DNA of 42,422 bases from Thermoanaerobaculia bacterium. GTDB lineage: Bacteria > Acidobacteriota > Thermoanaerobaculia > Multivoradales > JAHZIX01. Where the stretch lies: NCBI GenBank assembly GCA_027069135.1, contig JALXFE010000471.1, positions 1-42,422 of the forward strand, written 5' to 3'. A program made the translations under genes and the position numbers. Shown here in pieces: positions 5,138 to 40,851 of the stretch (position 1 is its first letter; every line of letters begins with the position of its first letter). The notes under the pieces are model-generated. The model saw nothing but the letters and a program-made list of their open reading frames with translations, was not told the DNA's origin and searched no databases.

Positions 5138-7015
5138 TCAATCGAGGGATTCCTTAGAATTCGACCCCCGAAGGCGCACCTGGGAACTGCCCTTCTTCGG
5201 GATCCCGGTCGGTGCAGCTTGGTGGACGTTTCCCTTGCGGACCCCGAGGGAGAAGGTGACCGGGCTACCGTGGCCCGGGGAGGAGAGGACGTCCAGGTCC
5301 AGAGAACCACCCTGGGTGAGGGTGACGAATTGGTTGGCGGGGAGATGCTCGAGGGTCGTGACCTCGCCGTCGGGCCACGTGATCGTGACCTCGTCTACCT
5401 GGGTCGCTGTGCCCAGGCCGAAATGAGCGTCTCCGGGCGGATTGTGGGAGAGATAGTTGTTGTGGCCGCCGACCTCCCGAATCTGGGTCATGCCACCGGC
5501 GGTGACGGAAACCCGCGCGTGCACCGCGAAGGTGTTGGGCCCCGGCGTTCTCAGGCGTAGGGCCAGGAAATTGAGATCGTTACCGCCGTCGTTGCGGTAG
5601 AGGGTCGGCTCCTGTTCGTAATTGGCGACGAAGAGGTCGATGTCACCGTCGCGATCGTAGTCAAAGCAGACGATCCCCCGTCCCTGGTCGGTGTCCGCAA
5701 CGCCAAGCTCCTCAGCCCGTTGAGTAAACGTGCCGTCGCCGTTGTTGACGAACATCCGCGAAGGGTCGAATAGGAAATCTTCGCCGACGCCGGTCGTCTC
5801 GAAGATCGGGTAGCCGTTGACATGGAAGAGGTCGAGGTGCCCGTCGTTGTTGAAATCCGCGAAGCAGCTGCCCCAACCCCAAAAACCTTCGCGAACCCCG
5901 GCTTCGTCCGTCACGTCCTCGAAGTCGCCGAATCCATCGTTGCGGTAGAGGCGATTGCCCGAAACTCCCCAGGTTCCGTCGGCCTCCCCTTCCGGCTCCC
6001 AGATACTGCTGATGAACCAATCGAGATCGCCGTCGTTGTCGTAGTCACCGATAGTGGAGCCCATACCGTTTTCATCCGAGATGACGGAGGTCGTCGCGTC
6101 GGTGAAGGTGCCGTCGCCATTGTTGAGGGCATACCAACTGGTGCCGAAGTCTGCGGACACGAGGATGTCCGGATGACCGTCACTGTTGATATCGGCCCAA
6201 TTGGGAGTGAAGGCGTTGGTCCGCAGCATGGGGCTGTTATTCCCGAAGGCGGCGCGGGAGGCGTCGCTGAAGTGGCCGGCTCCGTCGTTGCGCCACATCT
6301 GGGCTCGTCCTTGGCTTCCCGGGCCGCGATTCCAGAAAGTGAGCATCACATCGAGGTCGCCGTCGTCGTCGATATCGCCGAAGGTCGAGGAGAAAGTGAA
6401 CCGGCCAACGTCGATGCCCGACTCCGTCGTGTAGTTCTCGAAGGTTCCGTCGCCCCGGTTGCGAAAGACCATCGGCGCGGTGAGCTGCGCCAGACCGCCG
6501 GTGATGATATCGAGGTCGCCATCGCCATCGATATCGCCGAAAGTAGCCCCGGTTCCGGGCTCCCCGGTCACCGCCAGGCCAGCGACAGCGGCACGCTCTT
6601 CGAAGGTGCCGTCGCCACGATTATGGAAGAGGAGATTTGGGCCTATGGAACCTCGGATGACATAGAGGTCCGCCCAGCCGTCGCCATCGTAATCCCCCGA
6701 GGCCACCCCCGCGGCGAGCAAACGCTGCGGGTCCGTCGGGCCGGCGAATCCCTGGCTATAGTTGAAACCTGCAGCCCGGGTGACATCGGTGAATCTCCAG
6801 GGCCCGTCGGCAAAGGCCGAGAGGGGAGAAAGAAGCACTGCAGCGGTGAGGATCCCGGTGCAGATCTTGGGGAGAGAGACGGATCGCCTTCTTGCGAGAG
6901 CCGTCCCAACAAGCCCTTCGCTGCCAGACTTGGGAGTCCGGTGTTCTGGGGCAGAGGTGGCTGTGCGGTGGCTCGAAGCCTCGTAGGTCGGCTTCGGGGT
7001 TTCGAATCCTGACAT
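5138..7015 (-). CDS. Secreted VCBS/FG-GAP repeat protein with C-terminal ASPIC/UnbV domain (copy A)
   Basis: A 625-residue exported protein. After a long basic N-terminus (about 40 residues) a hydrophobic segment ILTAAVLLSPLSAFA forms a signal peptide. At least seven repeats follow, each with a calcium-loop pattern such as GDYDGDGWADLYV, GDIDGDGDLDI, GDYDNDGDLDWF and DFNNDGHLDLF, consistent with an extracellular seven-bladed propeller. The ASPIC/UnbV module near the end includes VTITWPDGEVTTLEHLPANQ. The start at 7015 is set by AGGAGAAGGAC just upstream. A TACAAT -10-like element lies at 7086-7091 without a convincing -35. It is a clear paralogue of the next gene, but its last 45 residues are unrelated to that gene's tail. 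Function is unknown; adhesion or polymer binding is only a guess. Confidence 0.85.
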   Translation of the reverse strand: MSGFETPKPTYEASSHRTATSAPEHRTPKSGSEGLVGTALARRRSVSLPKICTGILTAAVLLSPLSAFADGPWRFTDVTRAAGFNYSQGFAGPTDPQRLLAAGVASGDYDGDGWADLYVIRGSIGPNLLFHNRGDGTFEERAAVAGLAVTGEPGTGATFGDIDGDGDLDIITGGLAQLTAPMVFRNRGDGTFENYTTESGIDVGRFTFSSTFGDIDDDGDLDVMLTFWNRGPGSQGRAQMWRNDGAGHFSDASRAAFGNNSPMLRTNAFTPNWADINSDGHPDILVSADFGTSWYALNNGDGTFTDATTSVISDENGMGSTIGDYDNDGDLDWFISSIWEPEGEADGTWGVSGNRLYRNDGFGDFEDVTDEAGVREGFWGWGSCFADFNNDGHLDLFHVNGYPIFETTGVGEDFLFDPSRMFVNNGDGTFTQRAEELGVADTDQGRGIVCFDYDRDGDIDLFVANYEQEPTLYRNDGGNDLNFLALRLRTPGPNTFAVHARVSVTAGGMTQIREVGGHNNYLSHNPPGDAHFGLGTATQVDEVTITWPDGEVTTLEHLPANQFVTLTQGGSLDLDVLSSPGHGSPVTFSLGVRKGNVHQAAPTGIPKKGSSQVRLRGSNSKESLD

Positions 7016-7300: not shown

Positions 7301-9013
7301 TCAGTTCACCGTCGCGCTCCAATGGGAGGTATCTCCGCTCTCGAAATCATCCGGGAAAATCATCGCGGGGCGGACACCTTGTTGAATCTCCAGGTGTTGA
7401 TCCACCGCGAGGTCGAAGAAGGTGGTGGCTTCGCCATCGGGCCAGGTGAGGGTCAGGCGATCGATCTCGGTGGCGGTGCCCAGGCCGAAATGAGCTTCGC
7501 CGGGGGGATCCTGGGAGAGATAGTGACTGCCGTCCCGCAGCTCTCGCAGCTGGGAGCTGCCGTCGGCGGTGAGGAGAATTCGTGTGCCGATGGCAAAGGG
7601 GTTGGGAGGCTCGGCCCTCAAAGTGAGGCTCAGGTAGTGCTGGGCGTTGCCGCCGTCGTTGCGGTATAGAGCTGGGGGTTGGTCGTTGTTGGCGATGAAG
7701 AGGTCCAGGTCGCCGTCGTGGTCGTAGTCGAAGCACACGACCCCGCGCCCCTGGCCGGTATCGTCGAGGCCCAGGTCTGTCGATCTCTCTGAAAAGGTGC
7801 CGTCGCCGTTGCCGGAGAAGAAGCGCGCCGGGTCTTGCCAGAACTCCTCGCCGATGCCGGCGACCTCGAAGGCGGAGTAGCCGTTGGTCTGGAAGAGGTC
7901 CAGGATCCCGTCGTTGTCGAAGTCGGCAAAGCAGCTTCCCCAACCCCAATAGCCGTGGCGCACACCGGCTTCGTCGGTGGCGTCAGCGAAGTGTCCTTGG
8001 CCGTCGTTACGGTACAGGCGGTTGCCACTGATCCCCCAATTGCCCTCGACCACCCCGTCCGGATCCCAGATGCTGCTGACGAACCAATCCAGGTCCCCGT
8101 CCCCGTCGTAGTCGCCGATGGCCGTCCCCATGCCGTTTTCGTCGGAGATGACGGGATCGTCCACGATGGTGAAAGTGCCGTCGCCCTGATTGAGGGCATA
8201 CCAGCTGGTGCCAAAGTCTGCGGCCATCAGCAGGTCCGGGTCTCCGTCGGCGTCGAGGTCGGCAAAGTTCGGGGTGAAGGAGAAGGCCTGGAGCTCGGGT
8301 GCGTCGCCCAGCGCTGTCGCGGTGACATCGGTGAAGTGTCCGGTTCCGTCGTTCTGCCACAGGAGGCCCTGGCCTGTGCTCTGGGGGCCGTAGGTCCAGA
8401 AGCTTAAGACGAGGTCCAGGTCCCCATCGCCGTCGTAATCCCCGAAGGTCGAAGAAAAGGTGTGCCCTCCCACGGCGATGCCGGAGGCGTCGGTGATGTC
8501 CTCGAAGGTGCCGTCGCCGCGGTTGCGGAACAGGCGGGGGGCGGGGGTGGATTCAATGCCGCCGATGATCAGATCCAACCAGCCGTCGCCGTCCACATCC
8601 CCCCAAGTGGGGCCGTTGTTGAGCGCTCCGGAGATGGCGAGGCCGGCTGAGTCCCCAACCTCTTCGAAGGTGCCGTCCCCACGGTTGCGAAAGAGGAGAT
8701 TAGGGCCGATATCTCCCCGCACGACATAGAGGTCCGTCCAGCCGTCGCCGTCGAAATCACCGGCTGCGACCCCCCCGATGAGGATTCGTTCTTCCGGAAG
8801 AAGCCCACCGAGGAAGCCGTGGCTGTAGTCCAAGCCGGCGGCCAAAGAGACCTCGGTGAAGGACCAGGTCCCCGCCAGGGCAGGATCCGCTAAGGCAAGA
8901 CCCAAGAGGATTCCGGCGAGGCCGGCGGCGGTGGAATGTCTGCAGGGGGTCTTGCGAAGAAGAGGCCACCCCGGAGTTCGCCGCAGCGATCGCGGCAACA
9001 CAGCGGTGTTCAT
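7301..9013 (-). CDS. Secreted VCBS/FG-GAP repeat protein with ASPIC/UnbV domain (copy B)
   Basis: A 570-residue paralogue of the preceding gene, alignable over almost its full length. It has a signal peptide (AGLAGILLGLALADPALA), calcium-loop repeats (GDFDGDGWTDLYV, GDVDGDGWLDL, GDYDGDGDLDL, DLDADGDPDLL, DFDNDGILDLF, DYDHDGDLDLF), then the UnbV module (LTLTWPDGEATTFF). It ends in MIFPDDFESGDTSHWS and a few more residues, a short tail resembling C-terminal tags I recall on secreted proteins of Acidobacteriota and some marine Gammaproteobacteria. The start at 9013 follows GGGAGATCAAA. The tandem arrangement with divergent tails points to local duplication. Substrate or partner is unknown. Confidence 0.85.
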   Translation of the reverse strand: MNTAVLPRSLRRTPGWPLLRKTPCRHSTAAGLAGILLGLALADPALAGTWSFTEVSLAAGLDYSHGFLGGLLPEERILIGGVAAGDFDGDGWTDLYVVRGDIGPNLLFRNRGDGTFEEVGDSAGLAISGALNNGPTWGDVDGDGWLDLIIGGIESTPAPRLFRNRGDGTFEDITDASGIAVGGHTFSSTFGDYDGDGDLDLVLSFWTYGPQSTGQGLLWQNDGTGHFTDVTATALGDAPELQAFSFTPNFADLDADGDPDLLMAADFGTSWYALNQGDGTFTIVDDPVISDENGMGTAIGDYDGDGDLDWFVSSIWDPDGVVEGNWGISGNRLYRNDGQGHFADATDEAGVRHGYWGWGSCFADFDNDGILDLFQTNGYSAFEVAGIGEEFWQDPARFFSGNGDGTFSERSTDLGLDDTGQGRGVVCFDYDHDGDLDLFIANNDQPPALYRNDGGNAQHYLSLTLRAEPPNPFAIGTRILLTADGSSQLRELRDGSHYLSQDPPGEAHFGLGTATEIDRLTLTWPDGEATTFFDLAVDQHLEIQQGVRPAMIFPDDFESGDTSHWSATVN

Positions 9014-27358: not shown

Positions 27359-29479
27359 TCAGATGGCCATGCCGACGGAGAAGTGCAGGACAAACGAGTC
27401 TTCTCCCGGGCCCGGATTGGTATTCCACGCACCGTCCAGCCGTAGGGGGCCGATGGGAAGCAAGTAGCGCAAACCCGTGCCGACGCCGGTGCGAATCTCG
27501 AAGGGATCAAGGAGCTGTGAGGCGTCGGGTACGAGGGTTCCGCTGTCGACGAAGAGCGCCCCTTCGAGGTTTCCCCAGATGGGACGTCGTAGCTCCAGGG
27601 TGAGCGTCGCGAAGGCTTCCCCCCCCTGGGAGTTGCCGTCCGCATCCACCCGAGGTACTCCGTCTGCGCCAATGGCGAGAAGATCATTCTCCTTGAAGGC
27701 CCGGACCGAGTTCTCACCGCCGCTGAAGAACCGTTCCTGAAGGGGAACGCGGTCCTGAGTGCGAACGGGGTAGATGGCGCCGGCGCGCAGGCCCGCGGCG
27801 AAGGTAGTTTTCTTCCCCAACGGCGCGTACGTACTGGCGCTGAGGTGAAAGCGGAAGAACTCCAATTCGGAGCCCAGGGGAGCGGTGGCGTATTCCAGGC
27901 TGAGCTCGGCAAGATTCCCGGAGTGGGGAGCGAAGAGATTGTCACGGTCGTCGTAGCGGCTCGTAAGGCGCAAAGACGAGATATCCACATCTTCCCGAGA
28001 GATGTCTCGGAGGTCTTCGGTGGCAAAATCCTGGGATTCCGAACGACGAAATTGATACCCCAGGGACGAGCTGAATTGGTCGGTCCAATCCTTGGTGAGG
28101 GAAACTCCGGCACCGTATTTGGCGCTGGTAAAACCGTCCAGCTCCCTTTGATCCGCTTCCAAGCTGATCTCGGTCGTCACATCTTCGAGGATCCTCCAGG
28201 GATCGCTGTAGGTGGCCCGGCCTCGCAGGGCCCGTTGGGCGGCGGTGACATCCGCCCTCAACCGGCTACCGCCACCGAAGAGATTTCGTTCTTTCAGACC
28301 CAGGCGCAGGCGTAGGCCTTCATAGGATCCGAAGCCCGGCTCGACGAAATATTCCCGGGTGGCGTATTCGTCGACCTGGATCCGAAGGGGGCGCTGGGAG
28401 CCTTCACCCTCGCCAAGAGCCTCGCCGAGAGAGAGCCGTACGCTGCGAAATAGGCCGGTGCGATAGAGGCGGCGAAAGCTCTCTCGTTCCCGATCGAGGC
28501 TGTAGCGTTGACCCGGCTCGAAGGCCAAATGGGAACGGATGAAGGACTCCCGCGTGCGCTGGTTGCCGTCGATTTCGACCCTCGAAATGAAGATTTCCGG
28601 ACCCGGGTCGGCGTGGACCGTCAGGCGAACCCGGCCGGTAGCGGAGTCCACCGATTTTTCCAGGCGGATCTGAGCGTCGGCGTGGCCCTCCTTGGCGAAG
28701 GCGTCCTCTATGCGGCCGCGGATCTCGAAGGGGTAGCGGGGGTGGTACGGAGCGCCGACGAAGGCCGCCTGGAGCGCTGCCCTAGATTTCTCGGAAATCG
28801 AGTCACAGCCTCGAAGCTCGACACTCTCGAGGACGTAGCGAATCCCTTCCCGGACGGGAACGAGGATCCGCGCCCGTCGTCCACCGTTCTCGAATTCGAC
28901 CTCCGGCGGGCCGACCTCAGCATCCAAGAAGCCGTTGCCCCGATAGAACGCCTTCAGGGTTTCCGCTTCCGTGAGGAGCTTTCTCCTCGAATAGACGGCC
29001 GAGTCCAAGCCTAGGAGTCCGTCCTGGGCGGAGGGAAAGAAGGTGAGCAACTCCTTCCTCGAATAGCTGGGGTTGCCGTCGAAGCGAATCTCAGAGATCT
29101 CCGCCCGGGGTCCTTCCTCGATGTGGAAGATGACCTTCCGCGGGAGGCTCAAGGGACCTCCCCGGCGCGTCGGTGGCTGGCGCTCGAATTCGACCTCGGC
29201 GGCGGCGTAACCCAGCTGGCGGTAGAGGGATGCGATCTCGAAAGCGGCATCGTCCAGATACGAAGAGCGAGGGTCTTTTCGGAACTCTTCCAGGTCCGCC
29301 GCGATGGCTTTCTTGAGCCGCGAAGCCTTGACCTCGCGGCGGCCTTCAAAGAGGATTTCCAGCTCGGAAGAAGCCTCGGAAGAAGCCTTGGCAGAGACCT
29401 CTGCAAGGGCCTCGGGGCCGGGGATCCCAGCGATCACCGAGCAGAGGAGCACGAGAAAGAGCGTGGGGCTTCTCATCAT
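27359..29479 (-). CDS. TamA/BamA-family outer-membrane protein
   Basis: A 706-residue Omp85 protein. The signal peptide (LFLVLLCSVIAGIPGPEALA) is followed by several POTRA-like segments, recognisable from GPRAEISEIRFDGNPSYSRK, EGIRYVLESVELRGC and GPEIFISRVEIDGNQRTRES. The C-terminal 320 residues form a beta barrel: VEPGFGSYEGLRLRLGLKER, LRADVTAAQRAL, RFFSGGENSVRAF (the Omp85 RGF-like loop region) and a final strand LHFSVGMAI. It overlaps the TamB-like gene by four bases (ATGA), so the two are translated together and most likely form the inner-to-outer membrane TAM bridge. Its role in outer-membrane protein or lipid transport is inferred from the family. Confidence 0.88.
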   Translation of the reverse strand: MMRSPTLFLVLLCSVIAGIPGPEALAEVSAKASSEASSELEILFEGRREVKASRLKKAIAADLEEFRKDPRSSYLDDAAFEIASLYRQLGYAAAEVEFERQPPTRRGGPLSLPRKVIFHIEEGPRAEISEIRFDGNPSYSRKELLTFFPSAQDGLLGLDSAVYSRRKLLTEAETLKAFYRGNGFLDAEVGPPEVEFENGGRRARILVPVREGIRYVLESVELRGCDSISEKSRAALQAAFVGAPYHPRYPFEIRGRIEDAFAKEGHADAQIRLEKSVDSATGRVRLTVHADPGPEIFISRVEIDGNQRTRESFIRSHLAFEPGQRYSLDRERESFRRLYRTGLFRSVRLSLGEALGEGEGSQRPLRIQVDEYATREYFVEPGFGSYEGLRLRLGLKERNLFGGGSRLRADVTAAQRALRGRATYSDPWRILEDVTTEISLEADQRELDGFTSAKYGAGVSLTKDWTDQFSSSLGYQFRRSESQDFATEDLRDISREDVDISSLRLTSRYDDRDNLFAPHSGNLAELSLEYATAPLGSELEFFRFHLSASTYAPLGKKTTFAAGLRAGAIYPVRTQDRVPLQERFFSGGENSVRAFKENDLLAIGADGVPRVDADGNSQGGEAFATLTLELRRPIWGNLEGALFVDSGTLVPDASQLLDPFEIRTGVGTGLRYLLPIGPLRLDGAWNTNPGPGEDSFVLHFSVGMAI

Positions 29480-32400
29480 TGGAATCGAAATACCAGGCGT
29501 AGGCCGTAATTGTAATCTTCGAAAGCGTCTTGTTCGCCGACCAGGTAGACCGCCCCCTCGGAGCCAAAAACGTCGTCGTCGACGAGGAAGGTCGCGTCGG
29601 TGGTCTCGACCCCGGTCTGGGACACTTCCCGGCCGCGGACGATCTCGAATCGATCCACCCAGGAGGCTTCGTCCCGGTCTCCGTTTCCCAACCAGCGGAC
29701 GAGAAAATCGCGAGCCAGGAAGAGGGCGACGGTCTCCGCCGCCTGCTGTTGGCGTTGCGTCCCGCCACCCGAGGAAGGCACTCTTCCCGTCAGGACCAGA
29801 AGCAGGAGATCTTCGTTGGGGAGGGGGGGCGAGGACGAGAGGAGAATCTCCGGGGCCTCCAGACTCCCGAGGACCTGGAGGCTCACATCGAAGCCGCGCA
29901 GCCGGGCGTTGCCGCGAAGGGCGAGATCCGGATTGAAAGGGGCCCGCCGACGAAAGGTGAGGGTTCCGGATTCCATCTCTACGGTACCGCTGGGCAGCCG
30001 GACCTGGGTCGGCTCGAGGAAGATCTGCCCCTCCGGCAACGGCACCTCGCCGGTCCCGCGGAGCCGAAGGTCGAGGCGTACGCTGCCAGAGGCCAGGTTG
30101 CTGGCGAGGCGGATGGGATCGACGGTGACCACCTCGAGATCGAAGGTGGCCTCGGAGAGGGGAGGATCCGGCAGGGAGAAGAATTGAAGCCCGGAGACGC
30201 TCTCCGCCGGGGCTCCGCCGGTGAGCGTCGAGCCAATTTCCCCGGCCAGCAGCCCCAGCAGGTCGATCTCCTGGCGGACCCGGGCGTTGCGCAGACCGAG
30301 ACGACCCTCGATCTGCGCGTGGTCCAGGGGGCCCGCGACGGTGATCTCGACATCGGCTCGCAGGCGCACGTCCGCATCCCGAGCCAGAAGGAGGTTCTCC
30401 CCTTCGAAGCGCAGATCCAATTGAGGGCCGGCATCGCCCAGCAGAATCTCACCATGGCCTCGAAAAGGGGCGGCTCCCAACTCTCCCGTCAGCTCTTCGA
30501 TGCGGGCGACCCCGGAATCAAGAGCCAGGCGGGCGTTCAAGGCGTCGACGCTCAAACCCCCTTCCTCAAAGCGCAGAAATCCTCCTGCAAGCTCCAGGGT
30601 ACCCCCGAGGTTCGGCTGGCCGAGAGTGCCGGCGGCCTCGAGGTCGAATCGTGCCGAGCCACCCAACCGACGGATTCCCGGAAGCCAGGGCCGGGCCCAC
30701 TCGATGTTGGGAGCCTCCATTCGGCCCCGGAGCCGAAGGGGTGCTTGGGCCATGGGAGGCCGGGTCTTGGCCTCGGAGCCGAGGAGGGCCGTGAGATCCG
30801 CCGGCAAGGCCAGGTGTCCCGAGAGCTCGAGGTGGAGGTCGTCCGCGAGCTCACCCCGGAGGTGCTGCAGATGTAGGCCTTGGGAGTCGAAATCGAGACG
30901 GGCTGACACCGTTCCAGGCCCCAGCTGTTTCGGGGGCCCTCCCACTCCGGCGAGCTCCAGAGTCACCCCCTCGCCGGAGAGGTCGGCCGTCGCTTCGAGG
31001 GCTCGCCAGCGGCCACCGGCCTCAAAATTGCCCCGCAGAGTGCCGTTCAGGTATCCGCCCTGGTCACCGAAGATCACCGGTAAGTGCTCGAGAGGGGCTG
31101 GGAGAAGCCGTCCCCGGAGCCGTAGGGGACCGTCCGCGAGCCAGTTCCCGGTCCATGGATCAAAGGGCAGCGAGCCTTCAGCTTCGAGGATCGGTTGGCC
31201 TTCCAGGGAGATCTCCAGGCCGTCGATTTCGAGGGAGCGGTTCTGCAGCCGGCCCTGCCATCGCAAACCCAGGATCTTCCCCAGGCTGGGCAGATGAATG
31301 CGTGCGAACTCACCCTCCCCTTCGAACGCCCATCCGTCCCCCTGCCAACGGCCGGAAGCCTCGAGATCGATTCCGTTGAACCAGGTTTGGGGCGGCAAGA
31401 AGGCTTCGATGAAGGGCATCGGATCCAGGCTCTCGGCCCGCAGGGAGATCCTGGAGTCCGGGCCTTCGCCGACGACCGCGGCGGCCAGGGTTCCGGCAGA
31501 ACCGGTCAGGAGCAGGCCTTGGAAGAGCGGGAAAGGGTGCGCAAGCCGTATCGTCACCGGCTGCCCTAGGGAGAGATCCTGCCCTTGTTCCTCGAGCTCG
31601 AAAGTCTTCAGGCGAAGGGTGGGAACCTCCCGAGCCTCGAGCCCGGACAGCTCGGCGCTGGCCAAGATCCGCCCGAAGGGCGTGTGTGCCTGGAACCGCT
31701 CGAGAGAGATCCTGCCGTCTCGGGCCATCGCGCGGACCTCCAGGTCGTCGAAAGACAGCCGGGAACCCCAATGAAGAGAACCGGTGGCGGAGAGCTCGCC
31801 GGACGCTCGACGCCAGGGACCGGAAAGGGTTCCGCGGGTGTGGAGGCTTCCGGCCAGAGGCCAGGGGGAAGGGCCATCGGCAACGAAAGCCGCCAGATCC
31901 CTTCCCTCGAGGGTGAATTCCAGACCCTTGAAGAGCATGTTCCAGGAAGACGTGCTCCCGGAAGACGTGCCCCCGGAAGACGTGTTCCCGGAAGACGTGC
32001 TCCCGGAAGACGTGCTCCCGGAAGACGTGCCCCCGAAATCGAGCCCTCCGTGGACCTCCAGGCGCCCCCAGCGCTCCTGGAGCTCGAGCCTTCGGAGCTC
32101 AAGACCTCGGTCCTTGGCTTGGGCCTCCAACCGAACCGTGCCCAGCCGATATCCGGCGACGGTGACTCCACGGCCTACCAGACGCGCTGTCCCGCGCAGA
32201 TCCGGCAGGCGACCGGAAAGCTGGAGTTCTCCGGCCAGCCGGCCCCCCCAAGGCGTCGATCCGAAAATTCTGCCGAGAGGAGCCAGAGACGAGAAATCAG
32301 CACCGGCCTCGAGGTGAAGGTCGATGTCCGGCGGTTCCGGGGAAGGCCTCGGCAGGAACTCCATTCGGGCCTCTCGGAGGTCCAAACGACCGCTACCGGA

Positions 32401-33696
32401 AACAACGAGGGATCCTTCGCTGAAGGTCAGCACGCCCTGGGAGAGGGTGCCCCGGGAGCGAAACAGATGCTCCGGGATGGGGCCGAAAAGTTCTCCCGTA
32501 AGGGTGACCCCGGTGCTTTTCAAGAAGGTGGGTATGGCCGGTAAATAAGCCTCGAGCCGGCCCTGCGTCGCGGGTAGCCAGACCTTGAGATCGGGCTCGG
32601 TGAGGGACAAGCCGGAGAGGTCCCCCTCGATGTGGTTCTCTCCCTGGCGCAGGCTCCAATGGGGAATGGCCAGGACGCCCTCCTGCCATCGGAGCTGGCC
32701 TTCCACCCGCTCCCACCGCGTTGCTCCGAGTACCGCGTCCTCGAGGTCCAGGCTCGCTTCTCCGGCTCCGGTCCGGGGTGCATCGAGGGGGACATCGAAG
32801 GTCGCAGCCAGGGCGCCTCGGCCGGCCAGGGGAGTCGAGACGCCGAGACGTCGGCGAAGAGCTTCGAGGTCGATGTCCCGAAGATCTGTTTCGATTGCCA
32901 CCCTTCCACTCGCCAACTCGCCCGCAATCCATCCGTTTCCATAAGGGGAGGAGATGCTAAGCCGGCCGGTACCTCGGCCCTCGGCGAGGTGAGATAGATC
33001 GAGATGGCCGTCGGACGTGATGGTGATGTCCTCGATCTGCAGCGTCTCGACTCGGAGCCGACCGTCCGCATAATGAGCCAGGCCGTTGAGATCGGAAGCA
33101 CCGGCGGCCGCGGACCCTTCGAGGATCTCCCAGCGGGGAAGCAGGAGCCGGATCGTATCCTCTCCACCGGCGGGCTCGATCTCCAAAGAGCCTTCCCGAA
33201 GCGCCAACCGACGCCTGGCATCGAGCCGAACCGTCCCCTCGAAGGAGCTGATCCGGAGCGCTGGGAGTCGGGATGGCAGAGAGAACGGCTCCTTGTCCGG
33301 GGGGGGATCCGAGCCGCGGGTGAGATCCACCTCGACCCTGAGATCCTCAGCCTCGACGAAGTCCAAGGCTCCGAGCTCGCGGCGCAGGAGGCCTGCAAGG
33401 GAGAATTCGGCCCGGATCTTCGAGGCTCTACAGGCCCGAAGGGGAGCCTCCGGCGATCGGGCCTCGAGGCGCAAGCCATGAATTTCCAGATAGCTCCAGG
33501 CGTTGGTGTCGAGGCTCTCGGCCTCGAAGTGGTAGCCGCCGAAACGCTCGACAGCCCAACCGGCGATGCCCAGGGCTGCCGGCCCCAGAAAGAGCCACCG
33601 GACAAAGAGCAGCACGACCAGCAGGCCGCCGCCGGTCCACAAGATCTTGCGGCGGCGGCTGGTAGAGCGGGGTTTGGAGGGGTGGGTCGGCGTCAT
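29476..33696 (-). CDS. TamB-like translocation/assembly module protein (AsmA-like)
   Basis: A 1406-residue inner-membrane-anchored protein. One N-terminal transmembrane helix (ILWTGGGLLVVLLFVRWLFL) is followed by more than 1,100 residues of repeating beta strands of the AsmA/TamB type. The C-terminal TamB domain includes GQIFLEPTQVRLPSGTVEME, LRGNARLRGFDVSLQVLGSL and SSSPPLPNEDLLLLVLTGR, and the protein ends with a beta signal GLRLVFRFQ. It precedes and overlaps the TamA-like barrel gene. Near residue 560-585 it carries a low-complexity Gly-Ser-Thr run encoded by six 15-bp DNA repeats, which interrupts an otherwise ordinary beta region. Role by family: a periplasm-spanning lipid or protein conduit. 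Confidence 0.88.
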   Translation of the reverse strand: MTPTHPSKPRSTSRRRKILWTGGGLLVVLLFVRWLFLGPAALGIAGWAVERFGGYHFEAESLDTNAWSYLEIHGLRLEARSPEAPLRACRASKIRAEFSLAGLLRRELGALDFVEAEDLRVEVDLTRGSDPPPDKEPFSLPSRLPALRISSFEGTVRLDARRRLALREGSLEIEPAGGEDTIRLLLPRWEILEGSAAAGASDLNGLAHYADGRLRVETLQIEDITITSDGHLDLSHLAEGRGTGRLSISSPYGNGWIAGELASGRVAIETDLRDIDLEALRRRLGVSTPLAGRGALAATFDVPLDAPRTGAGEASLDLEDAVLGATRWERVEGQLRWQEGVLAIPHWSLRQGENHIEGDLSGLSLTEPDLKVWLPATQGRLEAYLPAIPTFLKSTGVTLTGELFGPIPEHLFRSRGTLSQGVLTFSEGSLVVSGSGRLDLREARMEFLPRPSPEPPDIDLHLEAGADFSSLAPLGRIFGSTPWGGRLAGELQLSGRLPDLRGTARLVGRGVTVAGYRLGTVRLEAQAKDRGLELRRLELQERWGRLEVHGGLDFGGTSSGSTSSGSTSSGNTSSGGTSSGSTSSWNMLFKGLEFTLEGRDLAAFVADGPSPWPLAGSLHTRGTLSGPWRRASGELSATGSLHWGSRLSFDDLEVRAMARDGRISLERFQAHTPFGRILASAELSGLEAREVPTLRLKTFELEEQGQDLSLGQPVTIRLAHPFPLFQGLLLTGSAGTLAAAVVGEGPDSRISLRAESLDPMPFIEAFLPPQTWFNGIDLEASGRWQGDGWAFEGEGEFARIHLPSLGKILGLRWQGRLQNRSLEIDGLEISLEGQPILEAEGSLPFDPWTGNWLADGPLRLRGRLLPAPLEHLPVIFGDQGGYLNGTLRGNFEAGGRWRALEATADLSGEGVTLELAGVGGPPKQLGPGTVSARLDFDSQGLHLQHLRGELADDLHLELSGHLALPADLTALLGSEAKTRPPMAQAPLRLRGRMEAPNIEWARPWLPGIRRLGGSARFDLEAAGTLGQPNLGGTLELAGGFLRFEEGGLSVDALNARLALDSGVARIEELTGELGAAPFRGHGEILLGDAGPQLDLRFEGENLLLARDADVRLRADVEITVAGPLDHAQIEGRLGLRNARVRQEIDLLGLLAGEIGSTLTGGAPAESVSGLQFFSLPDPPLSEATFDLEVVTVDPIRLASNLASGSVRLDLRLRGTGEVPLPEGQIFLEPTQVRLPSGTVEMESGTLTFRRRAPFNPDLALRGNARLRGFDVSLQVLGSLEAPEILLSSSPPLPNEDLLLLVLTGRVPSSGGGTQRQQQAAETVALFLARDFLVRWLGNGDRDEASWVDRFEIVRGREVSQTGVETTDATFLVDDDVFGSEGAVYLVGEQDAFEDYNYGLRLVFRFQ
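31946..32035. repeat. 15-bp minisatellite inside tamB, six copies
   Basis: Six adjacent copies of GAAGACGTGCTCCCG, with one variable dinucleotide position, lie at 31946-32035. Being a multiple of three, copy changes keep frame. On the coding strand it gives repeats of Gly-x-Thr-Ser-Ser with x being Ser, Asn or Gly. Confidence 0.93.
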
Positions 33697-34666: not shown

Positions 34667-34765
34667 TCACGACCTCTTCACCTGTCCACGGAATAATCTT
34701 TCCCGAAAGACGGTCTTTACTCCCAGGAAGATACTTCTATGACTACCTGGCGAAGGGAGATATCA

Positions 34766-36952
34766 ATGCTTACCTCTTCCACTGGAAGACTATGGCGGCT
34801 GGTGCCGGCGCTCCTTTTCTTTGGCTTTTTCCTCCCTGTCCTAGCCCTCGGCCAATCTGACGCGATTTCGATTTCCAAGGAAGTGGCCCAGAACCAACGG
34901 GAGCTTCGGCGAGTCGAGGAGCTTCAGCGCCGAGTTCTCGAATTTCCCAGGGATGAAAAGGCCTGGAGCGAGCTCTTGGATCTCCTCGAAGGTGCCCCTT
35001 TTCGGGAATCCTTCCTCGAACACTTTCGGCGCCGTCGTGATTGGGTCAGCCGGAGCACCCCTCCGGAAGACCTCAAGACAACCGCCGAGATCCTCCTCTT
35101 CGACTGGACCGCTGCCGCAGCGACGGCGCTGCCCTCTTCTCCATCCCTTAGGTGGAGGCTTCTCTCCCTTCAAACCGGAGGTGAAATGCACCCTTCGGAT
35201 GCTGAAGCTCTTCAGGAAGCCTTTCCCGACAACCCCCAAGTGGCCTACTGTCTGGCCCAGGGCTGGGCGGAGAGGGAGTCCCCGGATAGGGGGCTTCAAC
35301 ACCTCACCGATTGGCTGGCCTCTCACCCACGGGATCCCCGGGGCTATCAGGCCCTGATCGGCTTTCAGCGGGATTGGGAGATGGAAGAGGGCGCCCGCGC
35401 GAACATCAAGAAGCGGGCAGAAGTCTTTCCTGAAGATCCAAGATTCCGAGTAGCGTGGCTCGAAGCCATGGCAGAGGCCTTCCCCGGAGATCTTTCCGAC
35501 GCTCTAGGCGCCGCCCTGAGAAGTTCTCGCGGGGAGTTGGAGCGGATGGCCATTTGCCAGGTTCAGCAAGACTTCGGGGATTTCTCGGAGGCTGAGGCCT
35601 GCTATCGGGGGTCGTGGTCCCGGATGCAAGAGCATCGCCCCGACGGCGAACCGGCGGAGGAATCTCAAAGAATCCTGGAAGCCATCTTCGACTACGCGGC
35701 TGGCACAGTCCGGGACATCTCCTGGGCACTGGAGATCCTCGCCGTTCAGCGAGGTGAGGCGGCACTCTCGAATTGGGACGAGCTCCTCGTGGAAGACGGA
35801 GATTTTCTTGATGAGGTCTGTGAAGCCTTCGATTTTACCTTTGCCAGAGGAGATTTCGACGTTGTCATCGAGGAGCAAAACGTTGCAGAGTTACGATGGG
35901 TATCTCTGCCCGAAATGCTCCAAACGTGCGGCCGAGAGAGCTCGTCCCGAGAGCTCTGGAAAACCGTTTTGTCTTCACTATCGGGACCAGATCTCGGTCA
36001 CCTTGCATGGGCTCACAAGGAAGCTCGCCGAGAGCTGCTTCAACGATTCACCAAGGGCCCCGTAGGGGCTGACCTACTTCAGGCTCTCTATGAGAATCAA
36101 GAATACTTGCCGGCATTGGACCGGGAGAAACTGCTGCGTCTGCGGACCGTGACCGATCCCACGACCGAAGCCCACCTGGAGTGGGCGATCTATCTCAAGA
36201 ACCAGGGCCGTTACCAAGAAAGCGAGAAGGCGTTGCAAAAAGCCCTGAGTCAGGATTCCTCCCGCCCGGACCTTTACCTAGCCCTTGCCGCCGTGGCCCT
36301 CGAGGCCGGCCATGACGAAAAGGCTCTGGCGGCGGCAGAGGCCCTCAGGAGACAGCGGGAGGCCACTCCTCGCCAGGTGGCCACAGCTCACTACGTCTTC
36401 GGCAGGGTTGCTCGGCGAGCCGGGAAGATGGAGGATGCCACCACCCACTTCGAGCGCTACTTCCTGCAGCATTTCGAGTTCGCAGGGTGCTGCGATCGAG
36501 GTCTCGATGCCGGCTTTGTTGCACATCTACGGGAGACGGAGCCGGAGGAACACCTCGCGGCCTATCTCGAGGCAAAGAAGGAAGCTCTGGCCAAGTTTGC
36601 TACCGCTTCTACACCAAGGGGGCCTTTCGCTTCCTGCGCGACGGACCTTTGTGAGCTCTTTGATGACCCCCATCCAGGTAGGAACAAGCTTTTTGAATTC
36701 CTCGCCGAGAAAAACCCTGACAACGAGGCTGTTCAAGAACGGGTAGCACCTATCCGCGCGCTTCGAAACCGTTGGCGTACCGAAGATCCGGAGACCCTCT
36801 TTGAAGACGAAAAAATCCTTTTCTTCGACCCAACGAGTCTCGGTAGGAGCTTTTCCATGACGATCACCACTAGCTGCGGCATGTTCGTGACCCTGCAGCC
36901 CCAGCTTTTCGAGTCTCCGTTTGACCCCTCCGACCCAACTTGCCCCTGGTAG
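34766..36952 (+). CDS. Secreted TPR-repeat protein with Cys-rich C-terminal part
   Basis: A 728-residue exported helical protein. The signal peptide spans about residues 1-30 (WRLVPALLFFGFFLPVLALG). Helical repeats run through most of the protein; clear TPRs are AHLEWAIYLKNQGRYQESEK, LYLALAAVALEAGHDEKALA and AHYVFGRVARRAGKMEDATT (about residues 470-570). The C-terminal 160 residues contain several Cys (FAGCCDRG, FASCATDLCELF, TTSCGMF, final DPTCPW). ATG 34766 follows GGAG by six bases; ATG 34739 with AGGAAG is an alternative. A 92-bp piece of this gene recurs downstream at 37879-37970, and short repeats flank the gene. No specific function can be assigned. Confidence 0.75.
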   Translation: MLTSSTGRLWRLVPALLFFGFFLPVLALGQSDAISISKEVAQNQRELRRVEELQRRVLEFPRDEKAWSELLDLLEGAPFRESFLEHFRRRRDWVSRSTPPEDLKTTAEILLFDWTAAAATALPSSPSLRWRLLSLQTGGEMHPSDAEALQEAFPDNPQVAYCLAQGWAERESPDRGLQHLTDWLASHPRDPRGYQALIGFQRDWEMEEGARANIKKRAEVFPEDPRFRVAWLEAMAEAFPGDLSDALGAALRSSRGELERMAICQVQQDFGDFSEAEACYRGSWSRMQEHRPDGEPAEESQRILEAIFDYAAGTVRDISWALEILAVQRGEAALSNWDELLVEDGDFLDEVCEAFDFTFARGDFDVVIEEQNVAELRWVSLPEMLQTCGRESSSRELWKTVLSSLSGPDLGHLAWAHKEARRELLQRFTKGPVGADLLQALYENQEYLPALDREKLLRLRTVTDPTTEAHLEWAIYLKNQGRYQESEKALQKALSQDSSRPDLYLALAAVALEAGHDEKALAAAEALRRQREATPRQVATAHYVFGRVARRAGKMEDATTHFERYFLQHFEFAGCCDRGLDAGFVAHLRETEPEEHLAAYLEAKKEALAKFATASTPRGPFASCATDLCELFDDPHPGRNKLFEFLAEKNPDNEAVQERVAPIRALRNRWRTEDPETLFEDEKILFFDPTSLGRSFSMTITTSCGMFVTLQPQLFESPFDPSDPTCPW

Positions 36953-36960
36953 GTCGTCCT

Positions 36961-37019
36961 CCCGTAGGGGCGAATCATCATTCGCCCCCCCCAGGCGAAT
37001 AATGATTCGCCCCTACGGG
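36961..37019. repeat. Large REP-type hairpin between convergent genes
   Basis: Two 26-base arms (36961-36986 and 36994-37019) starting CCCGTAGGGGCGAATCAT are complementary except for one base, around a 7-base loop. It starts eight bases after the TPR stop and precedes the convergent Crp-like gene, so it may also end transcription, although there is no U-run. Confidence 0.9.
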
Positions 37020-37035
37020 TGGGGGGCGGTTGGAT

Positions 37036-37066
37036 CGGATATTCCGGATATTCGGCGGCGACCTCT
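37036..37066. repeat. Right copy of the repeat flanking the TPR gene
   Basis: CGGATATTCCGGAT followed by ATTCGGCGGCGACCTCT. It matches the left copy at 34627-34666 apart from the left copy's 8-base insert and a single base. It lies just inside the end of the convergent regulator gene's 3' flank. Confidence 0.72.
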
Positions 37067-37073
37067 GCGGTCA

Positions 37074-37760
37074 TCAGCCGAGGCTCAGATCGACCAGGGC
37101 CCGGCGATCGACGATGGTGAAGCCATCGCTGCGGGTGCGCACCGGGCCCTCCTTGTTCCAGCGGCTCATGAGGCGGATGGCCGTTTCGATGGTGGTACCG
37201 GTGAGGTCCGCCAGCTCCTGGCGCGCCAACACCATGGGGATGAAGATCTCCCCTTCCGCCGGTCGCCCCATGTCCTGGGCGAGATTGAGAAAGAGGCGGG
37301 CGAAACGGACCTCCATCCGGCCGCTGCGGTCCGCCATTCGGTTGGAGAGCTTCATCAATCGGCGGGTGAGGCCGGTCAGCAGGCTCCGAACGAAGGAGGG
37401 CCGGGCCTCGAGGAGCTCGAAGAAGGCACCCTTGCGGATGGCCAGGCAGGTCGTCGGTTCCAGGGCGGCGGCGGTGGCGGGATAGGGCCGGTCCTCATAG
37501 ACCGCCACGGCCCCCACCGGGGCGTGGGATCCGAAGAGTTCCAGGATGATGTCCCGGCCGTCCGGGGTCGCCTTGGAGACCTTGACCCGACCTTCCGCAA
37601 CCACCACGAAGTTGTCCGATGGATCCCCTTCCCGAAAGATCACCTCCCCGCGGCGGTAGGTACTCACTTCGGTGACCGCGGCGAGGCGGTGACGGTCTTC
37701 CTCCGCAAGCTTTCGGAAGAGCGGGTTCTCGAGCAGTAATTGCTCAGCAGGCTTGGGCAC
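37074..37760 (-). CDS. Crp/Fnr-family transcription regulator
   Basis: A 228-residue regulator with an N-terminal cyclic-nucleotide-binding-like domain (PLFRKLAEEDRHRLAAVTEV, YRRGEVIFREGDPSDNFVVV, ELFGSHAPVGAVAVYEDRPY), a long dimerisation helix (about 125-150), and a C-terminal winged helix (LARQELADLTGTTIETAIRL MSRW region). There are no Fnr-type N-terminal Cys, so Fe-S oxygen sensing is unlikely. The phosphate-binding Arg-Ser pair of true cAMP receptors is not evident, so the ligand is unknown. Start is GTG. It is a single gene, convergent with the TPR gene across a large hairpin. Confidence 0.88.
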   Translation of the reverse strand: MPKPAEQLLLENPLFRKLAEEDRHRLAAVTEVSTYRRGEVIFREGDPSDNFVVVAEGRVKVSKATPDGRDIILELFGSHAPVGAVAVYEDRPYPATAAALEPTTCLAIRKGAFFELLEARPSFVRSLLTGLTRRLMKLSNRMADRSGRMEVRFARLFLNLAQDMGRPAEGEIFIPMVLARQELADLTGTTIETAIRLMSRWNKEGPVRTRSDGFTIVDRRALVDLSLG

Positions 37761-37878
37761 GGTGTCGGGGACTCATGGTTGACGGACCTCCGGCATCTCA
37801 AGGGATCTCGTCTCTCCCGAGCTTGCCGACTCCAGGTGTTGTTGAATCGGATGCGGACCCTGCAAGCTTATCACCTGC

Positions 37879-37970
37879 CTTCGAGCGCTACTTCCTGCAG
37901 CATTTCGAGTTCGCCGGGTGCTGCGATTGAGATCTCGACGCCGGCTTTGTCGCACACCTACGGGAGACGC
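37879..37970 (+). pseudogene. 92-bp duplicated fragment of the TPR gene
   Basis: This stretch matches 36448-36539 of the TPR gene at all but six positions. It would encode FERYFLQHFEFAGCCD and then hits an in-frame TGA where the parent has CGA. It is a detached, decaying copy, with no start codon or flanking TPR sequence. Confidence 0.9.
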
Positions 37971-37973
37971 CCC

Positions 37974-38010
37974 CCCGGGAGCGAAACAGAGGTTCCGGGA
38001 TGGGGGCGAA
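37974..38010 (+). repeat. 37-bp segment matching the inside of tamB
   Basis: CCCGGGAGCGAAACAGA and the following 20 bases match 32451-32487 within the tamB-like gene with three mismatches. It begins four bases after the TPR fragment and merges into the first REP unit. The last nine bases could be REP sequence instead. Confidence 0.7.
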
Positions 38011-38186
38011 GGATGATTTGCCTGTGGGTGGGCGAATGATGATTCGCCTGTGGGCGGGCGAATGATGATTCGCCCCTACGGGTGGGGGGCCTTCGGTTCC
38101 AATGAGGGGGCAGAAGGATGATTTGCCCCTACGGGTGGGGGGCCTTCGGTTCCAATGAGGGGGCAGAATGATGATTCGCCCCTACG
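38002..38186. repeat. REP array, downstream side of the RAYT gene
   Basis: About five units of a palindromic element GGGCGAATGATGATTCGCCC, most followed by CTACGGGTGGGGGGCCTTCG and a GTTCCAATGAG linker. Two units have the changed core AAGGATGATTTGCC. The last two units run into the 3' end of the transposase reading frame. Confidence 0.9.
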
Positions 38187-38734
38187 TTTAATGAATCTTC
38201 CTTCCAGCGCGCGGGGTTCTCGGCGATGTAGCGTCGGATCCGGTCCAGGTCCGGTTCGTCCCGGACGATATGATCCCAAAAACCGCGTTGCCAGATGATC
38301 TCTGCCACCGAACGTTGCCGGTACCATTTCGTGACGCCGATTTTGAATCCTCGGACCACGGATCCGAGGGTACGAGATGTTCCCTTTGGGTGCGAGGCAG
38401 CGGGGTCGCACCCTACCTCTGCAGTCCCCGCCGAGGCGGCGATCTCCAGGATGCCGTGAACATGATTCGGCATCACCACCCACTCATCCAGTCGGACATT
38501 CGGGAAATGGTCAGGAATTCTCGTCCAAGAATCGACAACGGCCCGTCCCGCATCGTTCAAGATCATCCGCCCCTCAAGAATCGTACCGAAAAGGTATCGC
38601 CGATTCTGCGTACAAACCGTCACGAAGTAGGTACCTTCCTGAGAATAATCATACCCACGAAGCCGAATCGACCGGCGGTTCCTGCGTAGGGGCGAATGAT
38701 CATTCGCCCGCGTCCCCAATGGGTGGTGTCTCAT
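38129..38734 (-). CDS. REP-associated tyrosine transposase (RAYT, Y1 family)
   Basis: A 201-residue Y1 transposase of the RAYT group, single-copy relatives of IS200/IS605 TnpA that cut REP hairpins. RRSIRLRGYDYSQEGTYFVT and VCTQNRRYLFG are the family start, EWVVMPNHVHGILEI contains the HUH pair (His-Val-His), and RRYIAENPARWKED carries the Tyr nucleophile. WQRGFWDHIVRDEPDLDRI is also typical. The start (ATG 38734, GGAGG 11 bases upstream) places the REP palindrome at 38690-38709 inside the coding region (residues 9-15). The C-terminal 17 residues are encoded by REP units. No later start exists before the core domain. Confidence 0.9.
   Translation of the reverse strand: MRHHPLGTRANDHSPLRRNRRSIRLRGYDYSQEGTYFVTVCTQNRRYLFGTILEGRMILNDAGRAVVDSWTRIPDHFPNVRLDEWVVMPNHVHGILEIAASAGTAEVGCDPAASHPKGTSRTLGSVVRGFKIGVTKWYRQRSVAEIIWQRGFWDHIVRDEPDLDRIRRYIAENPARWKEDSLNVGANHHSAPSLEPKAPHP
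38690..38709. repeat. Perfect 20-base REP palindrome inside the RAYT N-terminus
   Basis: GGGCGAATGATCATTCGCCC reads the same on both strands. It belongs to the same element family as the two arrays and is translated within the transposase N-terminus. Confidence 0.9.
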
Positions 38735-38798
38735 GCGCGTCGCGTCCTCCCCGGCGGTGTTCCTGCCATCGTGGAGAATACCCAATTCACCGCGGTCC

Positions 38799-38985
38799 GG
38801 GGGGGGCGAATGATGATTCGCCCCTACGGATTGGGGGGGGCCTTCGGTTTAAATGTGGGGGCGAATGATGATTCGCCTCTACGGATTGGGGGGCCTTCGG
38901 TTCCAATGTGGGGGCGAATGATGATTCGCCCTACGGATTGGTGGCCTTCGGTTCTTGCGTAGGGGCGAATCATCATTCGGCCGCG
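38799..38985. repeat. REP array, upstream side of the RAYT gene
   Basis: Three direct units of GGCGAATGATGATTCGCC followed by CTACGGATTGGGGGGCCTTC and a short linker (starting about 38799, 38856 and 38910), then one unit in opposite orientation (GTAGGGGCGAATCATCATTC, about 38958-38985). The spacer differs slightly from the downstream array (GGATT against GGGTG), which marks two sub-families. Confidence 0.9.
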
Positions 38986-39009
38986 CCGCCTAGTGATTCT
39001 CCCCGGTAT

Positions 39010-40851
39010 TCAGGGGGTAAGCCGGACGGCAAAATTGTCCACGAAGCTCGCGTCGTGGATCCCGTGGTCGATCTCCAGAACGGCGTGATCGATATCCGCT
39101 GGGTTGACAGGAATGGTAACCAACAGAGTCCAGCTAAGGAAATTTACTTTCCTATAGAGGCGAAGCTCCCGGGCGGCACCATCGTATTCGAGCTTCACAG
39201 AGACCTTGTACAGAGGAAGAAAGGGGTCGAGGCTAAAGAGAAGGGTTCCCTCCCGACCATATACCCTGAGGTTGCCGCTCAGCTCGACCCAGAATCTGCC
39301 GGCATCGATGAGAGGTTCGACCGGACTCGACGAAAAACCGATCGACACCGACCCAGAAGGGGAAGAGCCAAAGGAGCTCGACGGATCCCTAATGGTCAAC
39401 TCCGCCTCGATAGAAGTCACGCCATCAAAGTCGATGGGCAGATCGTAAGGGATGCCGCCGACGGGCGTCCCAGCGGGGAAGGTCGTCGTGACCTTACCCC
39501 CCGAGGTCTTGAGCGGCCAGGCCGGATCGACCGTGTCCCAGGTGGCGCCGCCCACTTGCAGGGCGCGACCCTGGAGAATGACCCCGTCTTGGGCGTCATT
39601 GAAATTGTCGGAATAGACCGGAGACAGCTCCACTCCCCCCGGCACGCAGCCTGCCGCGGCTTGTTGGTCGAGAGCTGCCTGCCGAGCGTCGCCAACACAG
39701 AGGGCCACCTTGCATTCATCTTGGTTATTGTCACCGAGCTGCGTCCTGAAGCGCTTGCCTGCCAGGTCAAAACCCGCTGAAGTGTGGAAGTTCCAACCCG
39801 CGGCGCCCGCGTAGACCGAAAGACCGAGAGAATTCAGGAGATCGTCATACAGGCAGTGATCGCTGCTGCCGCCGGCGCCTCCTTCGCACCAGCCAACCCG
39901 GGCCTCTTCCTGCAGATGAATGGGTATGATGGTATCCAGGATATCTCGAAGGTGATCCACTCTCTCGACGGTTTGTTCGTCCCAGAGCGCGGTGCGTGAA
40001 AAGTGAGGGGCTGCTAGATCAGCTCCGCCTTGCACGATGTTGTATCCTAGTTGGGCACTCGAAGTGCTCTGGTTGAGGCCGGCCTGCGAGAATGTGATGA
40101 GTCGATTCACATCGGCGGCGGTCGCCGCTAGCTTCAAGGCCTCGATTCTGCCCCAATTCGGCGACGAAGTACCACCCGTGAAGGACTCGTTATCAATGTC
40201 GATGAACACATTGGGATACTCCCCTTCGATCTCCCCGACGAAGTCGACGATGCCGTTGTGATACTTGGGCCAGCACGAAGCATCGTTGCCGCAGCTCTGC
40301 AGATCGCACCCCTCTTGGAGATAGTCCCGGTACCAGAAGCTCACGTCGACGGTGAAGCCGCGTTGGGTGGCGGCGTCTAAGACGGCCCGCAGGGCATTGA
40401 CACGGCTCGAGATAAGATTTCCGCTGGCATCGATGATACATGCATTCGGTACCGGGAGAGTGTTGCCGGGGTTGCCTTCAGACCAGTCCCGATTCCAGGT
40501 AGCCAGGATACGCACGTGATTGAAACCCCGATTGCCGAGCCAATTCAGGTCCGACTCGACATCGGAGATGGGAGCTCCGATAGCAGAGAAATAGCTCACG
40601 CCCATAACGTGTTTGCCGTCGTACGAGGGGCCCCCGGGCGTCTCCGGTGGCAAGCCTTCGATGTACGGCCCGCATTGAGTTGGAGCCGGACCCGGCAGCG
40701 TCGGAAGTTGTGCATTGCAGCTAGTGTTCGGGCAGGTGGCCGCGGACAGTGCCTGGGCTGTTAGACAGCCCACGAGCACAATTCCCATCAAGTATCTGTT
40801 TTTGATGATTCTTCCTTTCGAGGTCTCAACGGTGACGGCAACGGAAGTCAT
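39010..40851 (-). CDS. Secreted glycosidase-like protein (TIM barrel plus lectin-like domain)
   Basis: A 613-residue exported protein. The signal peptide is near residues 20-37 (GIVLVGCLTAQALSA). The first 350 residues look like a cellulase-type TIM barrel: FNHVRILATWNRDWSEGNPG, FTVDVSFWYRDYL and VFIDIDNESFTGG, where the Asn-Glu would be the acid/base. Six or more Cys suggest disulfides. The last 200 residues (VYSDNFNDAQDGVILQGRAL, then IEAELTIRD and LYKVSVKLEYDGAARELRLY) resemble a LamG/concanavalin-like sandwich. ATG 40851 follows AAGGAG by nine bases; upstream starts at 40869 and 40992 are less supported. The glycosidase family cannot be fixed from sequence, and the substrate is unknown. 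Confidence 0.65.
   Translation of the reverse strand: MTSVAVTVETSKGRIIKNRYLMGIVLVGCLTAQALSAATCPNTSCNAQLPTLPGPAPTQCGPYIEGLPPETPGGPSYDGKHVMGVSYFSAIGAPISDVESDLNWLGNRGFNHVRILATWNRDWSEGNPGNTLPVPNACIIDASGNLISSRVNALRAVLDAATQRGFTVDVSFWYRDYLQEGCDLQSCGNDASCWPKYHNGIVDFVGEIEGEYPNVFIDIDNESFTGGTSSPNWGRIEALKLAATAADVNRLITFSQAGLNQSTSSAQLGYNIVQGGADLAAPHFSRTALWDEQTVERVDHLRDILDTIIPIHLQEEARVGWCEGGAGGSSDHCLYDDLLNSLGLSVYAGAAGWNFHTSAGFDLAGKRFRTQLGDNNQDECKVALCVGDARQAALDQQAAAGCVPGGVELSPVYSDNFNDAQDGVILQGRALQVGGATWDTVDPAWPLKTSGGKVTTTFPAGTPVGGIPYDLPIDFDGVTSIEAELTIRDPSSSFGSSPSGSVSIGFSSSPVEPLIDAGRFWVELSGNLRVYGREGTLLFSLDPFLPLYKVSVKLEYDGAARELRLYRKVNFLSWTLLVTIPVNPADIDHAVLEIDHGIHDASFVDNFAVRLTP

What the first reader, a model, noticed from the sequence alone, without database searches (positions are those of the whole stretch)
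37879..38010. Chimera of two gene scraps (TPR gene and tamB) joined beside a REP array
A 92-bp piece nearly identical (86 of 92) to the inside of the TPR gene lies four bases from a 37-bp piece matching the inside of the tamB-like gene (34 of 37), and this runs straight into the first REP unit. The parents are 1.4 and 5.5 kb away. Matches of this length are not expected by chance in 42 kb. It suggests that the RAYT/REP system, or a repair process at REP hairpins, captures and joins short genic pieces.
Basis: partly seen in the sequence, partly recalled or inferred. Interest (0 to 1): 0.68.

Follow-up and report, generated by a model that had tools for sequence, protein, structure and literature searches.

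The report
Scar of a local copy-paste accident
A 130-base stretch between two genes is a patch of two short copies of neighbouring genes stitched together at the edge of a palindromic repeat array, most likely a fossil of local template switching during DNA replication; it is real and informative, but it is not evidence of a dedicated gene-capture system.

Summary
Window 37879-37969 copies TPR-gene positions 36448-36538 (85/91); ~37975-38010 copies tamB positions ~32452-32487 and runs into the first REP unit. These are the only significant matches in the 7.17 Mb genome (E 3e-33, 3.5e-9).

RAYT capture is not needed. In 1.73 Mb of this genome I found six more intergenic gene scraps with parents up to 5 kb away. 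One abuts another REP array (C626). One flanks an array of an unrelated palindrome (C20). Four have neither nearby, including a similar two-gene chimera (C104). All seven loci are in direct orientation, and all three multi-piece chimeras are joined 'right end then left end', as at a tandem-duplication junction. Ku was not found.

Best reading: duplication-type, microhomology-assisted template switching, or duplication with loss, with hairpin arrays as frequent but not obligatory switch points. E. coli REP clusters are a documented hotspot of this kind (PMC3161906). Enrichment at palindrome arrays is suggestive: 3 of 7, p~0.001; 2 of 6 without the index case, p~0.01, with one family noticed post hoc. 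No close relative was found, so the event cannot be polarised. Real, but of a known kind.

The parts
37879..37969 (+). 91-bp copy of the inside of the TPR gene (parent 36448-36538), 6 mismatches, one of them creating an in-frame TGA
37970..37974 (.). junction filler, part of a 7-C run, assignable to neither parent; GGGAGA just before it occurs in both parents in the same register
37975..38010 (+). copy of the inside of tamB (parent about 32452-32487; antisense to the tamB reading direction); last ~9 bp overlap the REP unit leader
36448..36538 (+). parent of the first piece, inside the TPR gene
34739..36952 (+). TPR-repeat protein gene (737 aa)
   Evidence: Pfam TPR matches
32452..32487 (+). 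parent of the second piece, inside tamB
29476..33696 (-). tamB-like gene (1406 aa, PF04357 E 6e-21)
37074..37760 (-). Crp-family regulator gene; the patch lies about 120 bp upstream of its start
36958..37022 (.). REP pair (inverted, GTAG-tagged at both ends) directly after the TPR gene
38005..38186 (.). REP array starting at the end of the patch
38129..38785 (-). RAYT-like (Y1_Tnp) transposase frame with HVH and YIxxNP motifs, between REP arrays; the only full-length copy found in the genome (the Pfam score, 20.9, is just below its cut-off of 23)
38685..38984 (.). second REP array, on the other side of the RAYT gene

Best explanation
The chimera is a fossil of a local, same-strand copying accident. 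A replication or repair end at the edge of the hairpin-rich REP array left its template at a short homology. Read leftwards, it switched from the REP leader TTCGCCCCC to the near-identical TTCGGCCCC in tamB and copied about 33 nt. It then switched at TCTCCC into the TPR gene, copied 91 nt, and returned beside the Crp gene. The result is a 126-bp templated patch that has since diverged by 6-9%. Shown: the pieces, their unique local parents, their direct orientation, the junction homologies, and the existence of similar scars elsewhere in the genome. Inferred: the order of the switches, fork stalling at the hairpin, and that it was a patch rather than the remnant of a larger duplication. RAYT activity is not required.
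For: Both parents are unique in the genome and lie within 5.5 kb. The homologies sit where switches are needed: 8/9 identity between the REP leader and tamB (only 3 such sites on both strands of a 7-kb stretch), and a 6-nt in-register GGGAGA at the TPR/tamB join (chance 0.004). Comparable scraps occur elsewhere in the genome, all seven loci in direct orientation. The three multi-piece chimeras (C471 36538|32452, C104 14141|8457, C20 6665|3977) all show the backward, duplication-type join. Three of seven loci abut palindrome arrays of two families. Ku was not found, which argues against end joining with captured fragments. Precedent: 22 of 90 sequenced novel junctions in starving E. coli lie at REP sequences, attributed to secondary structure and microhomology-mediated template switching (PMC3161906).
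Against: No close relative is available, so the pre-event sequence is unknown and the left boundary (37878/37879) cannot be checked for homology. Four of seven scrap loci have no palindrome array near. Single-piece scraps are equally explained by tandem duplication followed by deletion. The sample is small (seven loci, 24% of the genome, a crude gene caller) and the index case was selected because of the REP.
Confidence: 0.55

Rival explanations
1. Eroded tandem duplication or amplification. A segment such as 36448-37878 was duplicated in tandem and the second copy was deleted down to 91 bp, with the tamB piece arriving during the deletion or left over from a further copy.
For: All scraps are direct. 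Single-piece scraps at C190, C342 and C626 fit one tandem duplication plus one deletion, and C104 fits a duplication of about 5.7 kb resolved by complementary losses. In an unrelated Dehalococcoidia contig, what reads as a degraded tail of a tandem gene family lies 26 bp from a REP (L134).
Against: In this window the order TPR then tamB, downstream of both intact parents, needs at least three copies or an extra rearrangement. The two REP groups are more alike in inverted than in direct alignment, so they do not show a colinear TPR-to-REP copy.
Confidence: 0.3
2. Capture by RAYT: the transposase excises or inserts REP-flanked single strands and carries neighbouring gene pieces along.
For: The only full-length RAYT of the genome lies next to the patch, and a second scrap abuts a REP array (C626).
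Against: Neither gene piece is flanked by REPs at its parental site. Scraps occur with no REP near (C104, C190, C342, C626:16107) and at a different palindrome (C20). Eight of ten REP arrays have no gene scrap, and 119 REP loci of other genomes gave only one genic candidate within 150 bp.
Confidence: 0.05
3. The pieces came from diverged copies of the same genes (another strain's allele, or a lost paralog) rather than from the present parents.
For: Four of six TPR differences are synonymous in the parent frame, as expected if part of the divergence happened in coding copies.
Against: One difference makes a stop codon. Over all scraps the codon-position pattern is mixed and does not discriminate. 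The only same-genus TPR homolog is 36% identical and shows no synteny.
Confidence: 0.08
4. Assembly chimera of the metagenome-assembled genome.
For: The genome has 626 contigs, and repeats break it.
Against: The pieces carry 6-9% mutations relative to their parents, which a misjoin of reads would not create; the same type of scar is seen on many contigs.
Confidence: 0.02

Closest known systems
Microhomology-mediated template switching (long-distance template switch / MMBIR) with junctions at REP clusters in E. coli (PMC3161906)
   Same: Junctions at a hairpin-rich REP cluster, short junction homologies, more than one switch in an event, no Ku required.
   Different: The E. coli events were selected amplifications of many kb with fresh junctions; here it is a 126-bp fossil patch with nearby donors, in a metagenomic genome, and the mechanism is inferred.
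Tandem duplication with loss of redundant DNA (duplication-random loss model, as described for mitochondrial genomes, PMC5745709)
   Same: Direct local copies, short intergenic gene remnants, and 'right end then left end' junctions as at C104 and C20.
   Different: In this window the remnant lies downstream of both intact parents, which one duplication plus loss does not give.
GTAG-tagged REP clusters that include segments of flanking DNA (PMC3733652)
   Same: The palindrome here is GTAG-tagged, clustered and next to a RAYT gene; [quoted passage not shown]
   Different: There the flanking DNA is repeated together with the REPs; here unrelated gene interiors from 1.4 and 5.5 kb away are present once.

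Membership tests
Microhomology-mediated template-switch scar | inserted sequence copied from nearby template(s) | tested here: met
   Unique parents at 1.4 and 5.5 kb
Microhomology-mediated template-switch scar | short homology at the switch points | tested here: met
   tamB/REP 8 of 9 and TPR/tamB GGGAGA, chance 0.004; the third junction is not testable without the pre-event sequence
Microhomology-mediated template-switch scar | donor copies retained intact | tested here: met
   Intact TPR and tamB genes
Microhomology-mediated template-switch scar | absence of the insert in a sister genome | not testable with these tools
   No close relative found among 58 related genomes or in the genome-contig scan
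Simple tandem duplication with erosion | direct orientation of the copies | tested here: met
   All seven loci
Simple tandem duplication with erosion | remnants colinear with the parents or at a single duplication junction between them | tested here: not met
   In this window the TPR|tamB join lies downstream of both intact parents; met at C104
RAYT/REP transposition product | mobilised DNA bounded by REP at donor and target | tested here: not met
   No REP next to 36448-36538 or 32452-32487
GTAG REP family with RAYT | palindrome with GTAG tag, arrays, Y1/HUH transposase gene flanked by REPs | tested here: met
   definition from PMC3733652; Pfam Y1_Tnp 20.9 bits, just below its cut-off

The most novel reading that the evidence does not exclude
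Edges of hairpin arrays, whatever their sequence family and with or without a RAYT, are natural hotspots where backward template switches deposit short joined copies of neighbouring genes, so such scraps are a readable fossil record of fork stalling at palindromes in wild bacterial genomes.
Probability: 0.3. Interest if true: 0.55.

Novelty: new member of a known kind. Interest (0 to 1): 0.36.

Why it matters
If the hairpin-edge reading holds, natural genomes keep fossils of the template-switch events that have so far been caught mainly in selected E. coli amplifications. Counting them at palindrome arrays versus elsewhere would test whether REPs destabilise their neighbourhood. The scars would also be a source of short chimeric intergenic DNA. 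If it does not hold, the result is still a useful caution: gene scraps beside REPs do not by themselves show capture by RAYT.

Tried and rejected
Widespread repeat: rejected, no other match in the genome. Full second TPR gene in this genome: none by protein search. Further scraps in 37740-37878: no match. Colinear duplication of TPR plus its REP pair: not supported, because the two REP groups align better inverted. Codon-position pattern of scrap differences as a clock for coding versus non-coding divergence: inconclusive, and the frames used for C626:29657 (off by one) and C20 (crude gene call) in that script are unreliable. A 37-bp inverted match near a REP on C126: both copies lie in coding sequence that reads as two sulfatase-like genes, not a scrap. 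Control in a same-genus genome without this REP: no scraps in 437 kb, too small to be informative. REP loci of other phyla: only L134 has a genic scrap within 150 bp. Rfam: no RNA family at 36400-39100.

Full report
OBSERVATION. The stretch 37879-38010 was compared with the window and with the whole genome of which the window is contig C471 (7.17 Mb, 626 contigs). The first 91 bases match 36448-36538 inside a TPR-protein gene with six mismatches. The bases from about 37975 to 38010 match about 32452-32487 inside a tamB-like gene. Nothing else in the genome matches significantly. Both pieces have the orientation of their parents. A few Cs between them fit neither parent, and the end of the tamB piece merges into the leader of the first REP unit (GGGGxCGAA).

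SURROUNDINGS. The patch lies about 120 bp upstream of a Crp-family gene and directly before a REP array. A RAYT-like transposase gene with HVH and YIxxNP motifs sits between that array and another. It is the only full-length RAYT found in the genome. The palindrome is GTAG-tagged, in the sense of PMC3733652. It was found in none of 58 related genomes, but an exact 29-bp version is present in several distant phyla. Ten REP arrays were located in this genome.

IS IT TIED TO REP? All ten arrays with flanks, plus control stretches, 1.73 Mb in all (24% of the genome), were compared with themselves. Intergenic scraps of nearby genes turned up at seven loci. They are this one; C626:29657-29800 (144 bp of the 3' end of an M24-peptidase-like gene, 45 bp from a REP); C626:16107-16311; C104:10826-10995 (three pieces from two genes); C342:40991-41083; C190:2740-2991; and C20:2454-3109 (several pieces). 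Four of the seven have no palindrome array near, and C104 is a two-gene chimera much like the one in question. So REP is not necessary. At C20 the scraps lie on both sides of an array of a different palindrome, CCCGGGGATTCATCCCCGGG. Three of seven loci thus abut palindromic arrays that make up about 3% of intergenic DNA (binomial p about 0.001; without the index case 2 of 6, p about 0.01). For the REP family alone it is 2 of 7 (p about 0.005) and 1 of 6 without the index case (p about 0.09). The second family was noticed post hoc, so these figures are suggestive only. A family-independent count of short hairpins in the 100-bp flanks gave 4 of 7 loci against 1.0 expected (p 0.011, stem of 7 or more); it weakened with longer stems (p 0.21 at stem 9) and includes the index case.

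GEOMETRY. All seven loci are in direct orientation relative to their parents. The three chimeras with pieces from two places join a right-hand piece to a left-hand piece (36538|32452 here, 14141|8457 at C104, 6665|3977 at C20), which is the form of a tandem-duplication junction or of a backward template switch. In this window the join lies downstream of both intact parents, so one duplication plus loss does not produce it; three short template switches do. The tamB/REP join has 8 of 9 identity with the REP leader, one of only three such sites on both strands of the 7 kb searched. The TPR/tamB join has GGGAGA in register in both parents (chance 0.004). Ku was not found in the genome.

MECHANISM. 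I therefore favour a templated patch made by microhomology-assisted, same-strand template switching that began or ended at the hairpin array edge. The chief rival is an eroded tandem duplication or amplification. The two are related, since a backward switch is how such duplications can start. In starving E. coli, 22 of 90 sequenced novel junctions lay at REP sequences, and the authors attribute this to secondary structure and template switching (PMC3161906). RAYT-driven capture has no positive evidence: the parental pieces are not REP-flanked, and scraps occur without REP.

LIMITS. No close relative was found: same-genus TPR identity is 36% without synteny. The pre-event sequence is therefore unknown. 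A same-genus control of 437 kb without REPs had no scraps but is too small to tell. In 119 REP loci from other genomes, one genic scrap (L134) lay within 150 bp of a REP, apparently the tail of a tandem gene family. The gene calls in the survey are crude.

VERDICT. A real and rather neat scar of a known kind of event. The idea of hairpin edges as natural switch points is supported enough to test, not enough to claim.

Noticed in passing
G000 C626:29657-29800 (L067 9658-9801): 144-bp copy (95.8%) of the 3' end of an M24-peptidase-like gene, parent 1.5 kb away, beside a REP array that is itself a tandem duplicate of about 199 bp.
   Followed up: yes
L089 10826-10995 (G000 C104): Chimera of pieces of two neighbouring genes (98.6, 87 and 84% identity) with no REP near; geometry fits a 5.7-kb tandem duplication resolved by complementary losses.
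   Followed up: partly
L277 2056-3109 (G000 C20): Several local scraps, including 390 bp of the region at 6276-6665, on both sides of an array of another palindrome (CCCGGGGATTCATCCCCGGG) that is also present on at least ten other sampled contigs.
   Followed up: partly
L109-L227: An exact 29-bp REP palindrome (GTAGGGGCGAATNATNATTCGCCCCTACG) occurs in genomes of many unrelated phyla (Bacteroidales, Chloroflexota, Desulfacinum, Omnitrophota, Planctomycetota, Geobacter and others) yet in none of 58 relatives of this genome; shared by transfer or by convergence?
   Followed up: no
window 5351-6713 and 7418-8777: Two adjacent stretches 70.6% identical over 1.37 kb, lying in neighbouring long minus-strand reading frames: an old tandem gene duplication.
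   Followed up: no
G000 C626:1-140 and 1371-1510 (L266): A contig end repeats an inner stretch, identical over its first 127 bases, and then runs into a perfect inverted repeat; looks like an assembly artefact at the contig end.
   Followed up: no
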